From a virus, in IMG/VR virus record IMGVR_UViG_3300046740_000104, positions 1 through 41,078 of that record: a DNA stretch of 41,078 nucleotides, one strand, 5' to 3'. Position 1 is the first letter of the stretch, and every line of letters begins with the position of its first letter. Below, piece after piece: positions 13,291-34,630 of the stretch. The position numbers and the translations under genes are program-made. The notes below the pieces were generated by a model that searched no databases, had not been told where the DNA came from, and saw only the letters and a program-made list of their open reading frames with translations.

Positions 13291-14217
13291 CTAGAAAGGT
13301 AGCGCCTTCAGCGCACCGCCAGCGAGACCGAACAGACCCGCATTGGTCTGCGACGCCGCCGCGCTCTGGGCCTTGTACTGGTCGTTGATGTATTGCGCGA
13401 TGTTCGGGGCCGCGACCTGCGAGCCTTGGAACGCCTGAAACTGCGGAATGGTCGCCTGCGCGCCACTCATCAGCGCGCTGATCTCGTTGATCGGCTGGTT
13501 GCGCTGGGCGTAAGCCTCGGTCGCCTGCCCGCCGCGCAGCGTGTTGTAGTAGTTCGCCAGCGACTGGTCGATGTTGAACTGCCCGGTCTGGGCGGCGTTG
13601 TAGGCCCCTTGCGCGGCCCGGGCCTCGTTGCCCGAACCGAGATAGGCTTGGCGCGCAGCTTCGGCCCGGTTGTCGTCGCGCTGCATCTGGTAATTGCCGT
13701 AGCCCTGCGAGCCCGGCGAAAGACCTCGCGCCGCGAGGCTCGCTTCCTGCGCCTGTTCGGTCGGCGCGGTCGAGCGGTTGTAGCTCTCCATCATCGCTTT
13801 TTCGATGCCGGGGCGATCCGTCGGGGTGGCGTCGTTGCGCAGGGTCTGCCCCTGTAGACTGGTCTGCCACGGCGTCCACGAACTGGTGTCCATCGGCTTG
13901 TTGAGCGTGTCGCGTATCCGCGCCGACTGTTCGACCGCCGTGGTGCCGAGGTTGTACTTGCCTTGGGTTTCCAGCCCCATGAGCTTCTGCTGGTCGGGCG
14001 AAAGCGTCGTGGTGCGTTGATAACGCGGCGCGTAGCCGCTGATCTGCCCGTTGGTGTAGACCGGCACCTGCTCGACGGCGTTGTAGCTCACCGTGCCGTA
14101 GGGATTGACCTCGTTCGCGTTGCTGCCGACGGTCGAATACTGCGCGGCGGCTTGGTTCTGCGCGCCTTGCGCCGCAGCCGTTGCATAGGGGTTGGGGGCG
14201 TCGGGTTGCGAGACCAT
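13291..14217 (-). CDS. Putative internal virion protein
   Basis: A 308-residue protein rich in Gln, Ala, Asn and Tyr, probably largely helical (TEQAQEASLAARGLSPGSQG; DDNRAEAARQAYLGSGNEAR). The start MVSQPDAPNPYATAAAQGAQ and the end GLFGLAGGALKALPF recall phage proteins near the neck genes of P22-like podoviruses that are packaged and ejected. It overlaps the GNAT stop by one base (TGATG). The role is assigned by gene order: neck, acetyltransferase, then ejection proteins. Confidence 0.7.
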   Translation of the reverse strand: MVSQPDAPNPYATAAAQGAQNQAAAQYSTVGSNANEVNPYGTVSYNAVEQVPVYTNGQISGYAPRYQRTTTLSPDQQKLMGLETQGKYNLGTTAVEQSARIRDTLNKPMDTSSWTPWQTSLQGQTLRNDATPTDRPGIEKAMMESYNRSTAPTEQAQEASLAARGLSPGSQGYGNYQMQRDDNRAEAARQAYLGSGNEARAAQGAYNAAQTGQFNIDQSLANYYNTLRGGQATEAYAQRNQPINEISALMSGAQATIPQFQAFQGSQVAAPNIAQYINDQYKAQSAAASQTNAGLFGLAGGALKALPF

Positions 14218-14708
14218 CAGTGGACCCTCTCATAGACGTAGTCCGGCAGCGTCGGGGTCGCCATCACGGTCGGGCCCTGATACCCCGGCAGGTATTTGCA
14301 GTCGGCTTTGAGCATGCCGTAAACCAGCGTGTCGCGGGTGCCTTCGAGCCCCAGACGGCGGTAGCCCTCGTAGACAAATCCCAACCGCTGCACTTGCCGC
14401 AACGCGCGTCGGTTATCCGGCTCGACTTCGGCAGTCAGCCGCCGCGCCTGAGAGAAAGCCGCCGTGAAGATCGCGCGCAGCACGCGCCGGGACATGCAGC
14501 GGGGATCAAGGACCATAATGGTCACGCGGCCCTCGAACCAGAACGGAAACTCGATGGCGAAGATCCCGGCGATATGCCCGAGATCGTTGCGCGCCCACGC
14601 CGAGAACCAGCGCGGGGCCTTGAAGTCGCAATGCGTGAAGTCGACGCGAAGATGCCGGGTCAGCATGTCCTGCGCGTCCTTGGGGAGATCGCCGAAACTG
14701 ATCCTCAC
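14217..14708 (-). CDS. GNAT-family N-acetyltransferase
   Basis: A 163-residue acetyl-CoA-dependent acyltransferase of the GNAT fold. The start is GTG at 14708, overlapping the stop of the upstream neck gene as GTGA. The C-terminal signature NRRALRQVQRLGFVYEG (residues 99-115) is the usual alpha4-beta7 region of GNATs, and the middle has the beta4-beta5 strands (AGIFAIEFPFW; RVTIMVLDP). The substrate is unknown. Its place inside the virion operon suggests modification of a virion protein or of a host target early after ejection, but neither is shown. GNAT genes in this position occur in other podophages. Confidence 0.82.
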   Translation of the reverse strand: MRISFGDLPKDAQDMLTRHLRVDFTHCDFKAPRWFSAWARNDLGHIAGIFAIEFPFWFEGRVTIMVLDPRCMSRRVLRAIFTAAFSQARRLTAEVEPDNRRALRQVQRLGFVYEGYRRLGLEGTRDTLVYGMLKADCKYLPGYQGPTVMATPTLPDYVYERVH

Positions 14709-16288
14709 ATCAGCCCTCCCAGTTCGTAGATCACGTCGAGGCCCGAAATCGACAACGTACAGCCGGAGACGCTGACGCGGATACGGGCCGCACCGACACG
14801 TCCGAGGCCCGTGATACCCTGCCAGTTCTGCTTGGGTTGCGTGGTCAGGGCCCAGTCGGAGGTGTCCCAAGACGCCGTATTCCAGACGGCACCGCCCGAG
14901 GGCCCGAGCGTGATCTCGGGCTGGTTGGTTGGCGGCACGTTGTTGTAATCCACTTCCAGATCCATGTACGGACGCGGCAAGCCATCGGTGATGGTGTAGA
15001 GCCGCATCATCTTGAAGTTCTTCTTGGCGGCGCTGCGGAAGCTCGACCACGCGAAGCGCACGTCGGCGTTGATCGCTGCGCCGTTGTCGTTGAGGTATTC
15101 CGAGCCCCCGAAATAGATCCCGCCGTCGTTGGAGCCGAAATAAGTATGGTTGTTGAGCCAGCCCCAGCAGCGCGCCGGAATGTCTTCCCACTTGAACCAG
15201 ATCGCCCCGGGCATCAGCCGTACCATCTGCTGGTACTTGCCCGCGCCGATCGGCATGTTGCAGATCGCGTGGTTGGTGTGGTGATTGAGCATGACCTGCC
15301 AGCCGAAATCGTCGCGGTGGTTCTTCGAGATCGTATCGAACTCCGCCATGATGCCGAGATCGGACTTGCCCAGCTGTTCGGTTTCGGCGCGCAGCAGCGT
15401 CGTCATCGGCACGAAGCCGGTCGAGATCATGACGTAGAGATCGCCGCCGAAATTGATGAGGCTGTTCTTCGACATCGGCGCGTCGAAACGGAAGATGCCG
15501 ATCAACTGGAAATTGCTCGCGGGATCGACGCCTTGGTAGATCGCGCATTCGCCGTTGCTGGTGAAGATCGCCAGCGCGTCGTCCATGCCCGCGCCGCCGT
15601 CGATTGACCATGTGGCGATGGCCTGAATGTTGCCGCCGCGCTTGAACAGCGCGTTGAGCGGCAGCAGCAGCAGCGTTCCGGATTTCTGCTGGACCGGCAG
15701 ATAGTACACCGCGAGGTTATCGCTGTCGGCGAACCACAGCCGGTTCATGTGCGAGAGGATCTTGTCGAACTTGTCGGGCAGTATCCACGTCTCGGCCGCC
15801 GGGGCCGTGACGGTTTCCTTGACGAAGGTGGTGCCGTCCCACGACCAGACGCCGTTGGTGCCGTTGACCATGACGGTGTAGTCGACGGCGGAGAGATTGG
15901 CGAAAGCCGTCCACGCCCAGTTGTCGCTGGTGAAGCCGCCTTGCAGCAACGCACCAGCGGTGTCGTAGATCCCGGTCCCGGCAGCGGCGGCGATCTTGCC
16001 GGTTGCGCCATAATACGAGATCAACGTCGAGATCGGGGTGTTCGCCGCAATCTGCCCCAGCTTGATGTAGCCCGGCCGCACGGTGATGCGGTCGTCCTCG
16101 ACGATCCAGTTCGTCAGGATCGAGGCCAGTTGCGGATCGGCGTCGCCGAGTTCGGCGTGGCGGGAGAGCCCCTTGAGGGGCGCGCCGGTATGCGCGACCC
16201 GGGCGGCGGGGCGACCTTTGTTCAGGGCCCGGGTCGGGGTGCCCCGAGGCTTCTTCAGCTCCAGAAATCCTGAAGGGCCCATTCTCAT
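14705..16288 (-). CDS. Tail hub / packaged-DNA stabilisation protein (P22 gp10-like)
   Basis: A 527-residue protein that I take for the podovirus neck/tail hub equivalent to P22 gp10, which closes the portal after packaging. It has the expected size and the repeating beta-strand pattern (for example GVWSWDGTTFVKE, NRLWFADSDNLAVYYLP, DALAIFTSNGECAIYQG and DLYVMISTGFVPM), typical of a beta-propeller-like hub. It is preceded by a small gp4-like neck gene with an ATGA overlap. The first 35 residues are basic and Pro-rich. No tape measure follows, consistent with a short tail. Confidence 0.8.
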   Translation of the reverse strand: MRMGPSGFLELKKPRGTPTRALNKGRPAARVAHTGAPLKGLSRHAELGDADPQLASILTNWIVEDDRITVRPGYIKLGQIAANTPISTLISYYGATGKIAAAAGTGIYDTAGALLQGGFTSDNWAWTAFANLSAVDYTVMVNGTNGVWSWDGTTFVKETVTAPAAETWILPDKFDKILSHMNRLWFADSDNLAVYYLPVQQKSGTLLLLPLNALFKRGGNIQAIATWSIDGGAGMDDALAIFTSNGECAIYQGVDPASNFQLIGIFRFDAPMSKNSLINFGGDLYVMISTGFVPMTTLLRAETEQLGKSDLGIMAEFDTISKNHRDDFGWQVMLNHHTNHAICNMPIGAGKYQQMVRLMPGAIWFKWEDIPARCWGWLNNHTYFGSNDGGIYFGGSEYLNDNGAAINADVRFAWSSFRSAAKKNFKMMRLYTITDGLPRPYMDLEVDYNNVPPTNQPEITLGPSGGAVWNTASWDTSDWALTTQPKQNWQGITGLGRVGAARIRVSVSGCTLSISGLDVIYELGGLM

Positions 16289-25664: not shown

Positions 25665-25908
25665 CTCTAGCCTCCAAAATCGCAGGGGTTGTATTTCAGC
25701 CCCTTTTCCCGTGAGAACAAAACGCGAAAACGCCGCCCATGCGTTATTTCACCTAAACCCATGTCCGATACCGGGCCCGCGAAAGGGCCCTCAGCAAGGC
25801 TCCAAATCAATCCTAGAGGGGTTGACACCTAAACCCTTCCCGTGCTTCATATTCATAGGGCCCGCAAAGGGCCTTGAGCCCATTTAACAAAAACCTAAAG
25901 GAAAACAA
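25665..25908. promoter_or_regulatory. Divergent control region
   Basis: A 244-bp gap between the late operon (minus) and the AAA+/VWA cassette (plus). It holds two copies of GGGCCCGC(G)AAAGGGCC (about 25773-25790 and 25858-25873), each able to fold into a hairpin. CACCTAAACCC occurs twice (25750-25760 and 25826-25836). A GGGGTTGACA box lies at 25818-25827. The AT-rich stretch before 25909 ends with an AAAGG ribosome-binding site. Late-gene promoters on the minus strand could not be recognised with confidence. Confidence 0.65.
25822..25853 (+). promoter_or_regulatory. Candidate promoter for the AAA+/VWA cassette
   Basis: A consensus -35 box TTGACA (25822-25827) sits inside GGGGTTGACA and is followed by only a weak -10 region (TTCATATT, 25846-25853). 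The same GGGGTTGACA occurs at 27448 and 34596. The spacing to the -10 is imperfect, so confidence is limited. Confidence 0.45.
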
Positions 25909-27447
25909 ATGCTTACCCAAAACACCCAAATTCCGACTGCTTCGCGCGGTGCCGTTCGCTCTATCGTCAAGGGTCACAGTGACTGGCCTGCTTTCCTGAT
26001 CGAAAAAGGCCTGATTAGCGCCAGTGCACGCAATGCAGACCTGATCGAATTCGCGCTGCGTTATCCGGCGCTCACAGCCAAAATCGAGGCCATCCTATCC
26101 CTGAGCCCGCAAGGCGCGCAAGCGGATGCGCCCGACACCATGATGGAAGATAACGATATGACAGACTTAGGCGGCGCAACATCACGCGCTCTCGGCGACA
26201 CCATGGTAGCCAATGGAACAATGACCCAGCACGAACGCAACGCAATTGACGCCAATGCAGCCGGTTTCGAGTTGGACAATATCTTGGGCACGGTCGACCA
26301 ACTGCTTTCGCCACTGGTACGCAAGGAAATTGCGGGCGCGCTTGCGCCTGTCATTGCCGCAGCCAATCGAGGGCCAATCGAAGTCGAACGCATTGTTGAA
26401 GTCGAACGCATTGTTGAAGTCGCACCCGGCGAAGGCCCGCGCATTGCGACTGCGCCGAAAGCACGCCGCGACAAGCGCGTATCCGTTCGCACGGTATTGG
26501 GCTCAAAGAAAAAAGACGCCTATCTTGACACGCCTTTGACGCTTTGGACGGGCGCGGCCTCGCCTGCCGCTGATCCTTTCTACGTCATCGAACGCAGCCA
26601 GATGGCCCTTCTAATGACGGCCTTCGAGCGCGGTACGAATGTCTGGCTGACAGGCCCTGCTGGCACAGGAAAAAGCACCATGCCTGAGCAGGCCTGCGCG
26701 ATGCTGGGAAGGCCCTTCACAAAGATCGGCATGACACGCCAGACAGACGTCGAAACCCTTGTAGGCGGCCCGGGCCTGCGCGCTGGCGCTACGGTTTGGG
26801 AAGACGGTGCTTTGGTCAAAGCGATGCGCCAGCCCGGCATGGTGATCTTGATCGATGAACTGACATTCGCGCCCGCAGGCGTACAGGCCATTGTGCAGCT
26901 AGTCGCGGATGACCATAGGTCCCTGACCCTGCCGACGGGCGAGGTGGTGCGCGCTGCGGATGGTGTGGTGTTCTGCGTTGCCGATAACACCACGGGCGCG
27001 GGCGATGAAGGCGGCCTCTATGCTGGCACCAATATCTCTAACGCGGCTTTGGTGACGCGGTTTAAGCGCATGATCCACGTTGACTACCTGAGCCCGCAGC
27101 GGGAAGCGGAAGCCCTCGCCAACCATACCGCATGCCCGTTGCCTGCGGCGCAGCACTTGGCGGATTTTGTCGCGCAATGCCGCAGGCAACCGACGCTGGC
27201 AGGGATTGTGATTTCGCTGCGGCAAATGGTTGGCTTCGTCCAGTGCATACAGGACGGTTTCAGCGCAAAAGAGGCCTTTGAAACCACCATTTCAAGCCGC
27301 ATGCCTGCGACCGAAAAGGCCACGATTGAAGGCCTTTGCGATCTCGCATGGTCAGAGGCCTTTGAGGCCTTGATGCACAACAAGCCGGTACCGGCGACAC
27401 CCTCGAATAGCGCCGCGTCCAATGCCTTTGCCGACACCCAATACTAG
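25909..27447 (+). CDS. CobS/MoxR-like AAA+ ATPase
   Basis: A 512-residue AAA+ ATPase of the MoxR/CobS type (AAA_5-like). It shows Walker A GPAGTGKS (249-256), Walker B VILIDE (312-317), a sensor-1-like N360 in ADNTTG, and an arginine-finger region ALVTRFKR (380-387). The N-terminal 240 residues are unusual for CobS and include a tandem EVERIV duplication from two 18-bp DNA repeats (26383-26418). Partner VWA proteins normally pair with such ATPases, and one follows at 27547. Cobalt chelation is unlikely because no CobN is present; remodelling of a protein target is more plausible. The GGGCCC hexamer typical of the rest of the genome is absent. Confidence 0.88.
   Translation: MLTQNTQIPTASRGAVRSIVKGHSDWPAFLIEKGLISASARNADLIEFALRYPALTAKIEAILSLSPQGAQADAPDTMMEDNDMTDLGGATSRALGDTMVANGTMTQHERNAIDANAAGFELDNILGTVDQLLSPLVRKEIAGALAPVIAAANRGPIEVERIVEVERIVEVAPGEGPRIATAPKARRDKRVSVRTVLGSKKKDAYLDTPLTLWTGAASPAADPFYVIERSQMALLMTAFERGTNVWLTGPAGTGKSTMPEQACAMLGRPFTKIGMTRQTDVETLVGGPGLRAGATVWEDGALVKAMRQPGMVILIDELTFAPAGVQAIVQLVADDHRSLTLPTGEVVRAADGVVFCVADNTTGAGDEGGLYAGTNISNAALVTRFKRMIHVDYLSPQREAEALANHTACPLPAAQHLADFVAQCRRQPTLAGIVISLRQMVGFVQCIQDGFSAKEAFETTISSRMPATEKATIEGLCDLAWSEAFEALMHNKPVPATPSNSAASNAFADTQY
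26383..26418 (+). repeat. Tandem 18-bp duplication
   Basis: Two perfect adjacent copies of an 18-bp unit (26383-26400 and 26401-26418) encode the repeated VERIVE segment in the AAA+ protein linker. The perfect match suggests a recent slip or expansion. Confidence 0.9.
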
Positions 27448-27468
27448 GGGTTGACAGTCAACCCCTAG
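27444..27468. promoter_or_regulatory. Perfect 25-bp palindrome at the end of the AAA+ gene
   Basis: Two 12-bp arms (27444-27455 and 27457-27468) flank a single A. The left arm contains the AAA+ gene's TAG stop and GGGGTTGAC. No T-run follows, so a protein-binding operator or an mRNA-protecting hairpin is more likely than a terminator. The arm matches the GGGGTTGACA boxes at 25818 and 34596. Confidence 0.75.
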
Positions 27469-27481
27469 ACCGTTAAAACGA

Positions 27482-27523
27482 GGCCTCGTTTTACCGCAAA
27501 AGCGGGAAAAACGAGGCCTTTTT
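27482..27523 (+). terminator. Terminator or attenuator between the AAA+ and VWA genes
   Basis: The arm GGCCTCGTTTTACCGC (27482-27497) pairs, with one mismatch and one bulge, with 27502-27518 around the loop AAAA, and TTTTT follows (27519-27523). It would reduce transcription into the VWA gene, which has its own ribosome-binding site (AAGGA before 27547). A shorter palindrome (27475-27492) overlaps the left arm. Confidence 0.8.
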
Positions 27524-27546
27524 CACGTTAAACCTAAGGAAAAACA

Positions 27547-29394
27547 ATGTCTTATACTTACCCGGAAGCACTCTCTGCCCTCGAAAGCATCGCAAACGAT
27601 TATATCAAGATCCTGCGGCCTAGCGAAAACGCGCCCGTGCGCTTGGTTTGCGACGCATACGCGCAAACGGCCTCAGTCACTTGGGATGTTTACGCAGTGA
27701 AAATTACCATGCCAGTTCGCGCCGCAACTTCGCGCATGGCGCAGGACGAATTCGAAGACTGGGTTGGCTACGTTCTGCACGAGTTGGGCCATCCGACGCA
27801 CACGAGCAAGAGCGCGTGGAACCATGCCGTTCGCCTAGGCGTGTCGCGCATGGTCAACGCGCTTGAGGACGTCCGCATGGAAAAGGCCGTCATTGCGTCC
27901 GGTATCGTTCCCAATGCGCGCCGCGTGCTGTCGCGCCTGATCTCCCGCAAGGTGATCGAAGCCCGTACCAATGGCTGGAAACCCAATGCACGCGCTGAAT
28001 TTGGTTGGACGGTTTGTGTGCTAGGCCGCGCAGCCAATGGCTACGCCATTGACGCCGCAGACGTCGATTGGATCAGGTCGCAGATCAAGCCCGGCTCAAC
28101 GGTTGAAACCGTCATGGGCTGGGCCATGCCCGCGCTGGCGGCCTGCCAGTCCACATCCGATTGTGTGGCCTTGGCTGAAAAGATCATGGCAGCACTCAAG
28201 ACGCCGCAAACCGGCCAGCCCGGCGAAGGCGAGGGCAAAGGCCAGCCCGGCGAAGGCGAAGGCCAGCCCGGCAAAGGCGAAGGCGAAGGCGAAGACGAAG
28301 GCCAGCCCGGCGAAGGCGAAGACGAAGGCGAAGGCGAGGCTGGCAAGCCCTCAGGCGAGGCTGGCGAGGCCACTGGCGAGGGCAAAGGCGAGAGCGAGGC
28401 TGGCGAGGCCAGCGAAAAAGAACGCACGGGCGAGGCCTCTGACAGCGAGGGCGATACCAATGCCGGAAAAGGCGGTACTGGCCACGGCACGGGCGCGACC
28501 GATGATGACGAAACCCCAATCGACGACGAAAACGACTTGGCGGAACATGATCTCGCACCCGCTGGCGAAGCAATGGAACCAAGCCAAGGCGCGAACGCGG
28601 AAAGGACCGTGATCGATATTCTGCGCGACAAGGTAATTCAATCGGAACCACGCAACGGGCCTAACCCTCGCATGGGCGCGAACGGTTTGCGCTTGAAGGC
28701 CAGCGCAGCCAATGCATCCCGGCAACGGGCACTATTGGCGAGGGCCCTGCGCGCAAACGAAACCGACGATAGGGAAGGCGGCCGGAAAGCAGGCCGTCTG
28801 GACCGCAGCGCATTAGCGAGGGCCAGCGCAGGCGCGGCAAACGTATTCGAGCGCCGCGATATTTCGGAGGGTTTTGACACGGACGTTTGCGTTTTGTTGG
28901 ACGCGTCCGGCTCAATGGCAGGCGCGAACATGATAAGCGCGCTTGAAGTAGGTCTCGTGGTGTCGCAGGCGGCTGCGAGTGTCGGCGCATCCTGCACCGT
29001 CGAAGTGTTCAACTCGCAGGGTTTCATCCGCGCGGGCGCGCTGGCCTCGAAACGCACGCCTAACCCTGCCGAATTCGGCGCGCTGCAAAACGCCGCAAGC
29101 GGCGGTACGCCTTTGTCGGCGCATATGGCGAGGGCTGCGGTCAACCAAGCCAAGCGCGCGCCGCAAAAGCGCCGCGTGCTTTTCGTGGTGACCGACGGGG
29201 CTTGCGACTATGGCCCGCAAACCGTCAAGCGCATGGCGAACTATCTGGAGCAGGCCCTTGGCACGATCATGGCACACGTTTCGATCGGCACGGCATTGAC
29301 CGGCGCGTTTCGCGCGGAAGTTCGCGTTCCCTGCGGCGCAGCCCTTTCGGAAATAGGCCTAGATCACTTCGTCAAGGTTTTGCAGGCCCTCTGA
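27547..29394 (+). CDS. CobT-like VWA protein with HExxH motif
   Basis: A 615-residue partner of the preceding AAA+ protein. The N-terminal domain has HELGH (78-82) followed by NALEDVRME (104-112), the layout of gluzincin-like metallopeptidases and of CobT/DUF2201-type proteins. Residues about 219-335 are an acidic Gly/Glu-rich linker (GEGEGKGQPGEGEG). The C-terminal von Willebrand A domain has MIDAS residues DASGS (452-456), T521 and D550, so metal-dependent ligand binding is expected. AAA+/VWA pairs usually form ring machines in which the VWA protein selects the target. Whether the HELGH site cleaves anything is unknown. A strong terminator follows. Confidence 0.88.
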   Translation: MSYTYPEALSALESIANDYIKILRPSENAPVRLVCDAYAQTASVTWDVYAVKITMPVRAATSRMAQDEFEDWVGYVLHELGHPTHTSKSAWNHAVRLGVSRMVNALEDVRMEKAVIASGIVPNARRVLSRLISRKVIEARTNGWKPNARAEFGWTVCVLGRAANGYAIDAADVDWIRSQIKPGSTVETVMGWAMPALAACQSTSDCVALAEKIMAALKTPQTGQPGEGEGKGQPGEGEGQPGKGEGEGEDEGQPGEGEDEGEGEAGKPSGEAGEATGEGKGESEAGEASEKERTGEASDSEGDTNAGKGGTGHGTGATDDDETPIDDENDLAEHDLAPAGEAMEPSQGANAERTVIDILRDKVIQSEPRNGPNPRMGANGLRLKASAANASRQRALLARALRANETDDREGGRKAGRLDRSALARASAGAANVFERRDISEGFDTDVCVLLDASGSMAGANMISALEVGLVVSQAAASVGASCTVEVFNSQGFIRAGALASKRTPNPAEFGALQNAASGGTPLSAHMARAAVNQAKRAPQKRRVLFVVTDGACDYGPQTVKRMANYLEQALGTIMAHVSIGTALTGAFRAEVRVPCGAALSEIGLDHFVKVLQAL

Positions 29395-29416: not shown

Positions 29417-29443
29417 GGGCCCGCAGCGATGCGGGCCCTTTTT
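29417..29443 (+). terminator. Strong terminator after the VWA gene
   Basis: An 8-bp GC stem (29417-29424 with 29431-29438) around the loop AGCGAT is followed by TTTTT (29439-29443). The loop is the same hexamer as in the terminator at 711-744. It closes the AAA+/VWA transcript. Confidence 0.92.
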
Positions 29444-29592: not shown

Positions 29593-29746
29593 ACGCGCAG
29601 GCGCGCAGGCGCAGACGCGCAGGCGCGCAGACGCGCAGGCGCGCAGGCACAGGCGCGCAGGCGCAGGCGCGCAGGCGCAGGCGCGCAGGCGCAGGCGCGC
29701 AGGCGCAGGCGCGCAGGCGCAGGCGCGCACAGGCGCGGGCGCGCAC
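29593..29746. repeat. GC-rich minisatellite, 14-bp unit
   Basis: Five perfect tandem copies of AGGCGCGCAGGCGC occupy 29651-29720, with degenerate copies (including 16-bp variants) on both sides. The strands alternate G/C with a few A, so the region could adopt unusual DNA structures or act as an iteron array. The frames through it read as Ala/Cys/Arg repeats and are not credible genes. It lies in the only gene-free gap longer than 300 bp (29395-29793). Confidence 0.92.
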
Positions 29747-34577: not shown

Positions 34578-34630
34578 AACATAGTGCATCAAAAAGGGGT
34601 TGACAATGACTTTATGCGTGCTACAACCCC
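34578..34630. promoter_or_regulatory. Overlapping divergent promoters with flanking inverted repeat
   Basis: On the plus strand, TTGACA (34600-34605), a 16-bp spacer and TACAAC (34622-34627) form a promoter for the 34729 operon. On the minus strand, TTGTCA (34606-34601), 17 bp and TATGTT (34583-34578) face the polymerase gene. The two -35 boxes overlap, so the promoters should exclude each other. GGGGTTG (34596-34602) and CAACCCC (34624-34630) form an inverted repeat spanning the plus-strand promoter and may be an operator. Confidence 0.7.

What the first reader, a model, noticed from the sequence alone, without database searches (positions are those of the whole stretch)
25909..29394. AAA+/VWA cassette with a metalloprotease-like HELGH motif
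A CobS/MoxR-type ATPase is paired with a protein that joins HELGH...NALEDVRME, an acidic linker and a complete MIDAS VWA domain. No CobN is present, so cobalt chelation is not the job. A ring ATPase that presents a VWA-selected target to a zincin-like site would be a plausible host-takeover or counter-defence machine. The cassette is divergent from the late genes, has its own promoter, palindrome, attenuator and terminators, and differs in composition.
Basis: partly seen in the sequence, partly recalled or inferred. Interest (0 to 1): 0.72.

Follow-up and report, generated by a model that had tools for sequence, protein, structure and literature searches.

The report
Phage AAA+ motor with zincin-VWA partner
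This phage carries a two-gene machine, an ATP-driven ring protein plus a protein that joins a zinc-protease-like domain to a binding domain, which databases mislabel as vitamin B12 genes; relatives sit beside DNA replication or recombination genes in many phages and in conjugative plasmids, so it is more likely a protein-remodelling or protein-cutting device than a B12 enzyme.

Summary
ORF1 (25909-27447) is a MoxR/CobS-clade AAA+ ATPase. ORF2 (27547-29394) joins a zincin domain (HELGH 78-82, NALEDVRME 104-112), an acidic linker and a VWA domain with complete MIDAS. AlphaFold2 gives the N-domain pLDDT 96.5; its leading solved matches are zincins. HExxH is kept in 69 of 70 distinct viral relatives, and in 51 of the 52 not found through that motif.

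It is not a cobaltochelatase by profile: CobS scores 51 bits against a cut-off of 558, there is no CobT hit, no CobN in 34 virus records, and 0 of 25 genuine CobT proteins has HExxH.

The architecture is not new. Iyer et al. 2021 reported it in jumbo phages and proposed virion assembly; Liu et al. 2021 called such pairs CobST. New here: (1) in close relatives the locus holds either this cassette or a DUF932 gene, never both, with at least 5 supported changes; (2) the same architecture partners 'cobS' in cyanophages (7 of 7 read) and is on IncC plasmids; (3) neighbours are often replication or recombination genes. Best reading: an ATP-driven, MIDAS-gated zincin acting on protein targets around DNA replication. 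Substrate and proteolysis are unproven.

The parts
25817..25850 (+). promoter-like element of the cassette: AGGGGTTGACA (-35-like TTGACA 25822-25827), weak -10
   Evidence: TTGAC-containing element conserved upstream of ORF1 in most close relatives; consensus scan found no sigma-70 site
25909..27447 (+). ORF1: CobS/CbbQ/NorQ-clade MoxR AAA+ ATPase, 512 aa
   Evidence: AAA_5 1.2e-17, PHROG_249 3.3e-51, CobS profile 51 bits of 558 needed; profile matches midasin, CobS, NorQ, CbbQ
25909..26112 (+). N-terminal ~68-aa phage-specific domain of ORF1, found as a stand-alone ~100-150 aa gene in relatives without the AAA+ gene
26653..26676 (+). Walker A GPAGTGKS
27446..27466 (+). perfect palindrome AGGGGTTGACAGTCAACCCCT overlapping ORF1 stop; operator/internal promoter candidate for ORF2
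   Evidence: related TTGAC elements after the ORF1 stop in most of 11 relatives
27471..27527 (+). stable hairpin with U-run between the genes (terminator or attenuator candidate)
   Evidence: RNA fold of 27440-27546: -48.2 kcal/mol, z -7.8; hairpins in the same place in several relatives
27547..29394 (+). ORF2: zincin domain, acidic linker, VWA domain, 615 aa
27547..28197 (+). zincin domain (residues 1-217)
   Evidence: AlphaFold2 pLDDT 96.5, pTM 0.91; leading VIA-align matches are zincins
27778..27792 (+). HELGH (78-82), predicted zinc site and catalytic Glu
   Evidence: 69 of 70 distinct viral relatives
27856..27882 (+). NALEDVRME (104-112) on the second helix; D108 (invariant) or E107 is the likely third ligand
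   Evidence: ligand assignment is inference
28198..28656 (+). low-complexity Gly/Glu/Ala linker with in-frame tandem repeats
28687..29391 (+). VWA domain
   Evidence: weak Pfam VWA matches; PDB CobT VWA E 0.006; alignment of 7
28900..28914 (+). MIDAS motif DASGS (T521 and D550 complete it)
29417..29438 (+). intrinsic-terminator-like hairpin after ORF2

Best explanation
ORF1 forms a MoxR-type AAA+ ring. ORF2 docks on it through its VWA/MIDAS domain, recognises a protein (or nucleoprotein) target, and places the target, opened by ATP hydrolysis, near the tethered zincin domain, which cuts or trims it with a zinc ion held by H78, H82 and D108/E107 and with E79 as base. The machine acts inside the cell in the replication/recombination phase of a mobile element's life, not in B12 synthesis and not mainly in virion assembly. 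Shown here: domain composition, motif conservation, zincin fold prediction, purifying selection, absence of CobN, accessory exchange with DUF932 in this phage group, and presence of the architecture in cyanophages and on conjugative plasmids beside replication/recombination genes. Inferred: complex formation, zinc binding, proteolysis, and the class of target.
For: Zincin fold (leading matches include ZMPSTE24, selecase/jannalysin minigluzincins, BlaR1, thermolysin, SPRTN). HExxH kept in 51 of 52 relatives that were not selected by that motif. Complete MIDAS. AAA+ ORF with hits in 82 of 85 loci. Same architecture in 7 of 7 cyanophages read (HEVGH, N-x-x-EDAR-x-E, DWSGS), mostly between gp46/gp47 and gp45/gp44 genes; in Vibrio phage ICP2 near a primase (HECYH, DSSGS); on IncC plasmids next to ssb-bet-exo (HEAAH, NVLEDCRIE, DMSSS). 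Genes flanking 48 viral loci are rich in primase/helicase and terminase families; no capsid or tail family is among the top 25. Cassette swapped with DUF932 in relatives.
Against: No biochemical proof of zinc binding or proteolysis. Foldseek alone gives no PDB match at E<0.001, and VIA Z stays below 8. Some partners in other phages lack HExxH (Pseudomonas phage nickie; Listeria and Mycobacterium phages), so a non-proteolytic role of the MoxR-VWA core is possible. Neighbourhood is weak evidence because phage gene order is modular; the distant-gene control also held DNA-metabolism genes (exonuclease, RusA).
Confidence: 0.47

Rival explanations
1. Viral CobST: the pair joins the host CobN and raises cobalamin production for viral replication (proposed for viral cobST clusters in PMC8651126).
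For: ORF1 belongs to the CobS/NorQ/CbbQ clade (CobS E 2.5e-36); the VWA domain matches solved CobT weakly (E 0.006); a host CobN could complete the complex.
Against: CobS score 51 bits of 558 needed and no CobT family hit; 0 of 25 genuine CobT has HExxH (they have HDxxxH and EQARVE-type motifs); the zincin profile does not hit any of them at E<=10 and profile-profile comparison is not significant (P 0.069); no CobN in the window or 33 further records. A conserved protease motif is not needed for chelation.
Confidence: 0.1
2. Virion assembly and processing of structural proteins (proposed for jumbo phages in PMC7824862).
For: Precedent of a MoxR-VWA pair in an archaeal two-tailed virus as cited there; no prohead protease was recognised in the window proteins scanned.
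Against: IncC plasmids make no virions but carry the zincin-VWA gene; the cassette is absent from close relatives with conserved packaging genes; neighbours are replication genes in ICP2 and cyanophages; here it lies on the strand opposite to the late genes.
Confidence: 0.13
3. Metallo-cofactor insertion or enzyme activation like NorQD/CbbQO: the HExxH domain holds or delivers metal, or is structural, without proteolysis.
For: MoxR-VWA pairs of this clade activate enzymes (own knowledge; NorQ, CbbQ and CobS are among the nearest solved ATPases); HExxH-free versions exist.
Against: The catalytic Glu is kept together with both histidines in 51 of 52 relatives not selected by the motif, which metal binding alone does not require; no target enzyme recognised nearby.
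Confidence: 0.15
4. Dedicated counter-defence or host-takeover protease against a host protein.
For: Accessory locus swapped against DUF932 between close relatives (at least 5 changes forced by supported branches); lower GC3; own regulatory elements.
Against: Present in as many cyanophage records as CobS, i.e. core there; replication neighbourhood; no known defence model matches.
Confidence: 0.15

Closest known systems
MoxR AAA+ / vWA pair with N-terminal metallopeptidase in group 2.2 jumbo phages (PMC7824862)
   Same: same domain order as described there (metallopeptidase-VWA) with a neighbouring MoxR ATPase
   Different: here in a ~41-kb phage; ORF1 carries an extra phage-specific N-domain; locus swapped with DUF932; virion-assembly role not supported
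viral 'cobST' clusters of haloarchaeal viruses and cyanophages (PMC8651126); Mae-Yong1326-1 CobS/CobT (PMC9503304)
   Same: same gene pair; Mae-Yong1326-1 ORF2 has HETLH...NCLEDVRIE and a MIDAS; zincin and VWA on separate ORFs in some relatives here, as reported there for HHTV-2
   Different: the published reading is cobalt chelation; the profile, CobN and HExxH tests here speak against it
Aerobic cobaltochelatase CobNST
   Same: MoxR ATPase; VWA with MIDAS; acidic linker
   Different: no CobN; genuine CobT has HDxxxH/EQARVE, not HExxH/LEDVRxE; far below family cut-offs
Minigluzincins and SprT/SPRTN/M48-type zincins
   Same: predicted fold and HExxH helix
   Different: extra C-terminal helices; Asp or Glu in an N-x-L-E-D-x-R-x-E helix as candidate third ligand; fused to VWA and paired with AAA+
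DUF2201_N putative metallopeptidase domain (PF13203)
   Same: described by Pfam as a putative metallopeptidase domain
   Different: only one of 63 relatives matches, E 0.0088

Membership tests
Aerobic cobaltochelatase CobS/CobT | score above the curated CobS (TIGR01650) or CobT (TIGR01651) cut-off | tested here: not met
   CobS 51.4 bits of 558.55; no CobT hit
Aerobic cobaltochelatase CobS/CobT | CobT N-domain without HExxH (HDxxxH, EQARVE type) | tested here: not met
   25 genuine CobT lack HExxH; the window has HELGH and LEDVRME
Aerobic cobaltochelatase CobS/CobT | CobN subunit encoded with it | tested here: not met
   PF02514 absent from window and 33 further records, controls positive; host CobN cannot be excluded
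MoxR-vWA pair with N-terminal metallopeptidase (Iyer 2021) | MoxR-clade AAA+ gene next to the VWA gene | tested here: met
MoxR-vWA pair with N-terminal metallopeptidase (Iyer 2021) | metallopeptidase-type domain N-terminal to VWA in one protein | tested here: met
   HExxH, fold, VWA MIDAS; direct comparison with ASV44728.2 not made
MoxR-vWA pair with N-terminal metallopeptidase (Iyer 2021) | role in virion assembly | not testable with these tools
   indirect evidence against
Zincin metallopeptidases | HExxH on an active-site helix of a zincin fold | tested here: met
Zincin metallopeptidases | zinc binding and peptide cleavage | not testable with these tools
   needs biochemistry
DUF2201_N (PF13203) | Pfam match over gathering score | tested here: inconclusive
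   one of 63 members, E 0.0088; the window itself had no match
MoxR-vWA-beta-propeller ternary conflict systems (bpMoxR PF20030) | bpMoxR score over 27 bits | tested here: not met
   13.3 bits
Known anti-phage defence systems (PADLOC) | match to any of 5027 models | tested here: not met
   no match at E 0.1

The most novel reading that the evidence does not exclude
The module is a mobile-element-wide, AAA+-powered zincin that clears or cuts proteins on DNA (a functional analogue of SPRTN/Wss1-type proteases working with a remodelling ATPase) during phage and plasmid replication or recombination; the 'cobS' gene of T4-like cyanophages, long counted as a B12 gene, would be its motor.
Probability: 0.18. 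Interest if true: 0.82.

Novelty: new member of a known kind. Interest (0 to 1): 0.52.

Why it matters
Viral cobS/cobT genes are routinely counted as auxiliary B12 genes; cobS is listed as a core gene of T4-like cyanophages (PMC3037559), and one study says it is unknown whether it acts in cobalamin synthesis (PMC9983427). A conserved protease-type active site in the partner protein, absent from genuine CobT, gives a direct, cheap test of that annotation. The link to DNA replication/recombination genes and the swap with DUF932 suggest where to look for the target.

Tried and rejected
Megablast of the window's right half against phages: no match. Profile-profile comparison of the zincin domain with CobT N-domains: not significant (P 0.069, probability 0.8%), although the motifs fall in register, so a degenerate-zincin origin of CobT is only a lead. 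Foldseek against PDB gave no E<0.001; the VIA second look was used instead and its Z values are modest. The alignment A3 was built only from sequences with HExxH, so its invariant histidines prove nothing; the count was made on relatives not filtered for it. L054 (HEIGGH) and bacterial L173 (HEGAGH) have one extra residue in the motif. Rfam: nothing at gathering score. PADLOC: nothing. Papers for DUF2201+MoxR: none; DUF932 papers give no function for this setting. PDB sequence search with the zincin profile: no credible hit.
Full report
The window is a 41,078-base IMG/VR virus record of a tailed phage: terminase, portal, major head protein, tail, amidase and endolysin genes on the - strand, then primase and DNA polymerase, also on the - strand, then + strand genes near the right end. 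The two genes of the finding are a + strand island between the gene upstream of the terminase (putative terS) and the primase.

Observation. ORF1 (512 aa) matches AAA_5 (1.2e-17) and PHROG_249 (3.3e-51). A six-sequence profile matches solved midasin, CobS, NorQ and CbbQ. ORF2 (615 aa) has HELGH at 78-82 and NALEDVRME at 104-112, a Gly/Glu/Ala linker with in-frame repeats, and a VWA domain with MIDAS residues invariant in seven sequences. dN/dS against six relatives is about 0.04-0.16 in AAA core, zincin and VWA domains, and 0.17-0.32 in the linker.

The zincin domain. With a 63-row alignment AlphaFold2 gives pLDDT 96.5 and pTM 0.91; HELGH lies on helix 66-85 and NALEDVRME on helix 100-118. VIA-align's leading matches are zincins, among them ZMPSTE24, minigluzincins, BlaR1, thermolysin, SPRTN, Wss1 and ArdC, with modest Z (at most 7.2). 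BFVD matches include phage proteins named CobT or VWFA. Among 70 distinct viral relatives 69 have HExxH; of the 52 that were found only through the other motif, 51 have it. D108 is invariant and E107 nearly so in the alignment; either may be the third ligand (inference).

Not a cobaltochelatase by the tests available. CobS scores 51 bits of 558 and CobT gives no family hit. CobN (PF02514) is absent from the window and from 33 further records including complete cyanophage, ICP2 and Microcystis phage genomes, with positive controls. I took 25 genuine CobT proteins from 150 genomes: none has HExxH, and nearly all have HDxxxH followed by an EQARVE-type motif. The zincin profile does not hit them at E<=10.

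Distribution. The zincin alignment finds 248 relatives in viral contigs, but only 8 in one genome from each of 84,980 bacterial and archaeal species; the scans rely on short peptide patterns, so these are lower bounds. Most of the 8 carry HExxH-VWA proteins, some with an AAA+ ORF nearby. One of them (L172) matches 3,532 plasmid records, 2,463 of them conjugative, though most matches cover only part of the query. The IncC example read in full has HEAAH, NVLEDCRIE and DMSSS in a VWA gene near ssb, bet, exo and an AAA family ATPase. Seven cyanophage 'peptidases' from different genera all have HEVGH, an N-x-x-EDAR-x-E motif and a DWSGS MIDAS near cobS, mostly in the gp47-gp46-peptidase-CobS-gp45-gp44 order. 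The numbers of Synechococcus, Cyanophage and Prochlorococcus records with the peptidase (365, 61, 24) equal those with CobS. Some phages (nickie, LP-013, Lolly9) have a CobS-like gene whose neighbour lacks HExxH.

Accessory exchange. I collected terminase relatives and read the terS-primase interval. Among loci with enough sequence, 23 distinct terminases go with the cassette, 8 with a DUF932 gene (PF06067, 1.5e-38) and 4 with only a stand-alone homologue of ORF1's N-terminal domain; none has both cassette and DUF932. Whole-record searches agree: no DUF932 in the cassette records, including several of about 40 kb or more, and no zincin in the DUF932 records, two of them of 41-42 kb. On the terminase tree DUF932 needs 6 changes, 5 of them forced by well-supported branches. 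Three DUF932 loci (L121, L129, L131) also encode the stand-alone N-domain; six others do not within the sequence held. The exchange may be by recombination, so the terminase tree need not be the tree of the locus, and many of the records are fragments.

Neighbourhood. In 136 genes flanking 48 viral loci the commonest PHROG families are primase/helicase, DnaB and terminase; no capsid or tail family is in the top 25. A control of 44 more distant genes has exonuclease, RusA, portal, terminase and integrase. This supports a place at the replication/packaging border but is weak on its own.

Regulation. AGGGGTTGAC occurs before ORF1, twice in a perfect palindrome at the ORF1 stop, and before the right-end + strand genes; 9 matches with up to one mismatch against 2.3 expected, no shuffle reaching 9. 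Relatives keep TTGAC-containing elements in the same places, several with dyad symmetry, and many keep a hairpin between the genes. The intergenic RNA folds with z -7.8 and a terminator-like hairpin follows ORF2. The consensus promoter scan found nothing, so promoter activity is inferred.

Known work. PMC7824862 described MoxR-vWA with a fused N-terminal metallopeptidase in group 2.2 jumbo phages and proposed virion assembly. PMC8651126 described cobST clusters in tailed viruses, called the peptidase label of cyanophage cobT a mistake, and proposed hijack of host CobN. PMC3037559 lists cobS as cyanophage core, and PMC9983427 states that its function in the infected cell is unknown. The present data favour the metallopeptidase reading of the protein, and weigh against both published functions as the general role: against chelation by profile, CobN and motif, against virion assembly by plasmid occurrence and by the exchange. 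The target remains unknown.

Noticed in passing
L121:5740-6789 (-), L131:4955-6004 (-), L129:4148-5254 (-): A DUF932 gene takes the place of the cassette in close relatives and was never seen together with it; its function is unknown.
   Followed up: partly
window 25909-26112; L121:5307-5663 (-), L123:5738-6106 (-), L136:3250-3585 (-): ORF1's N-terminal ~68 aa (IPTSxRGQVRARVKAHPxWxxFL...SASARNADLIEFAL) exists as a separate small gene in phages without the AAA+ gene; no Pfam match.
   Followed up: partly
genuine CobT, L180-L204: CobT N-domains keep a conserved HDxxxH and EQARVE-type motif that falls roughly in register with HExxH and LEDVRxE of the phage domain; CobT may be a degenerate zincin, but the profile comparison is not significant.
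   Followed up: partly
L205:6965-8761 (IncC plasmid pSL26_IncA/C2): The IncC 'VWA domain-containing protein' beside ssb-bet-exo and DUF3150 has HEAAH, NVLEDCRIE and a MIDAS: a zincin-VWA protein on a conjugative resistance plasmid.
   Followed up: partly
L005:4783-6611 and other loci such as L043, L047, L053: In several lineages the zincin+linker ORF ends before a MIDAS appears; in L005 the VWA is a separate downstream ORF, as reported for HHTV-2.
   Followed up: partly
L054:2216-4507 and L173:9836-11965: Two relatives have a one-residue longer motif (HEIGGH, HEGAGH).
   Followed up: no
window 29594-29745: GC-rich tandem array (14-base unit, ~11 copies) just beyond the cassette's 3' end.
   Followed up: no
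window 14217-16288: Two long - strand ORFs (464 and 527 aa) overlap by about 900 bases in different frames; the downstream one matches an acyltransferase family only near its C-terminus, so its start is probably further downstream.
   Followed up: no
window 34595-34604: Exact AGGGGTTGAC ahead of the right-end + strand genes, suggesting a shared phage promoter or operator type.
   Followed up: no
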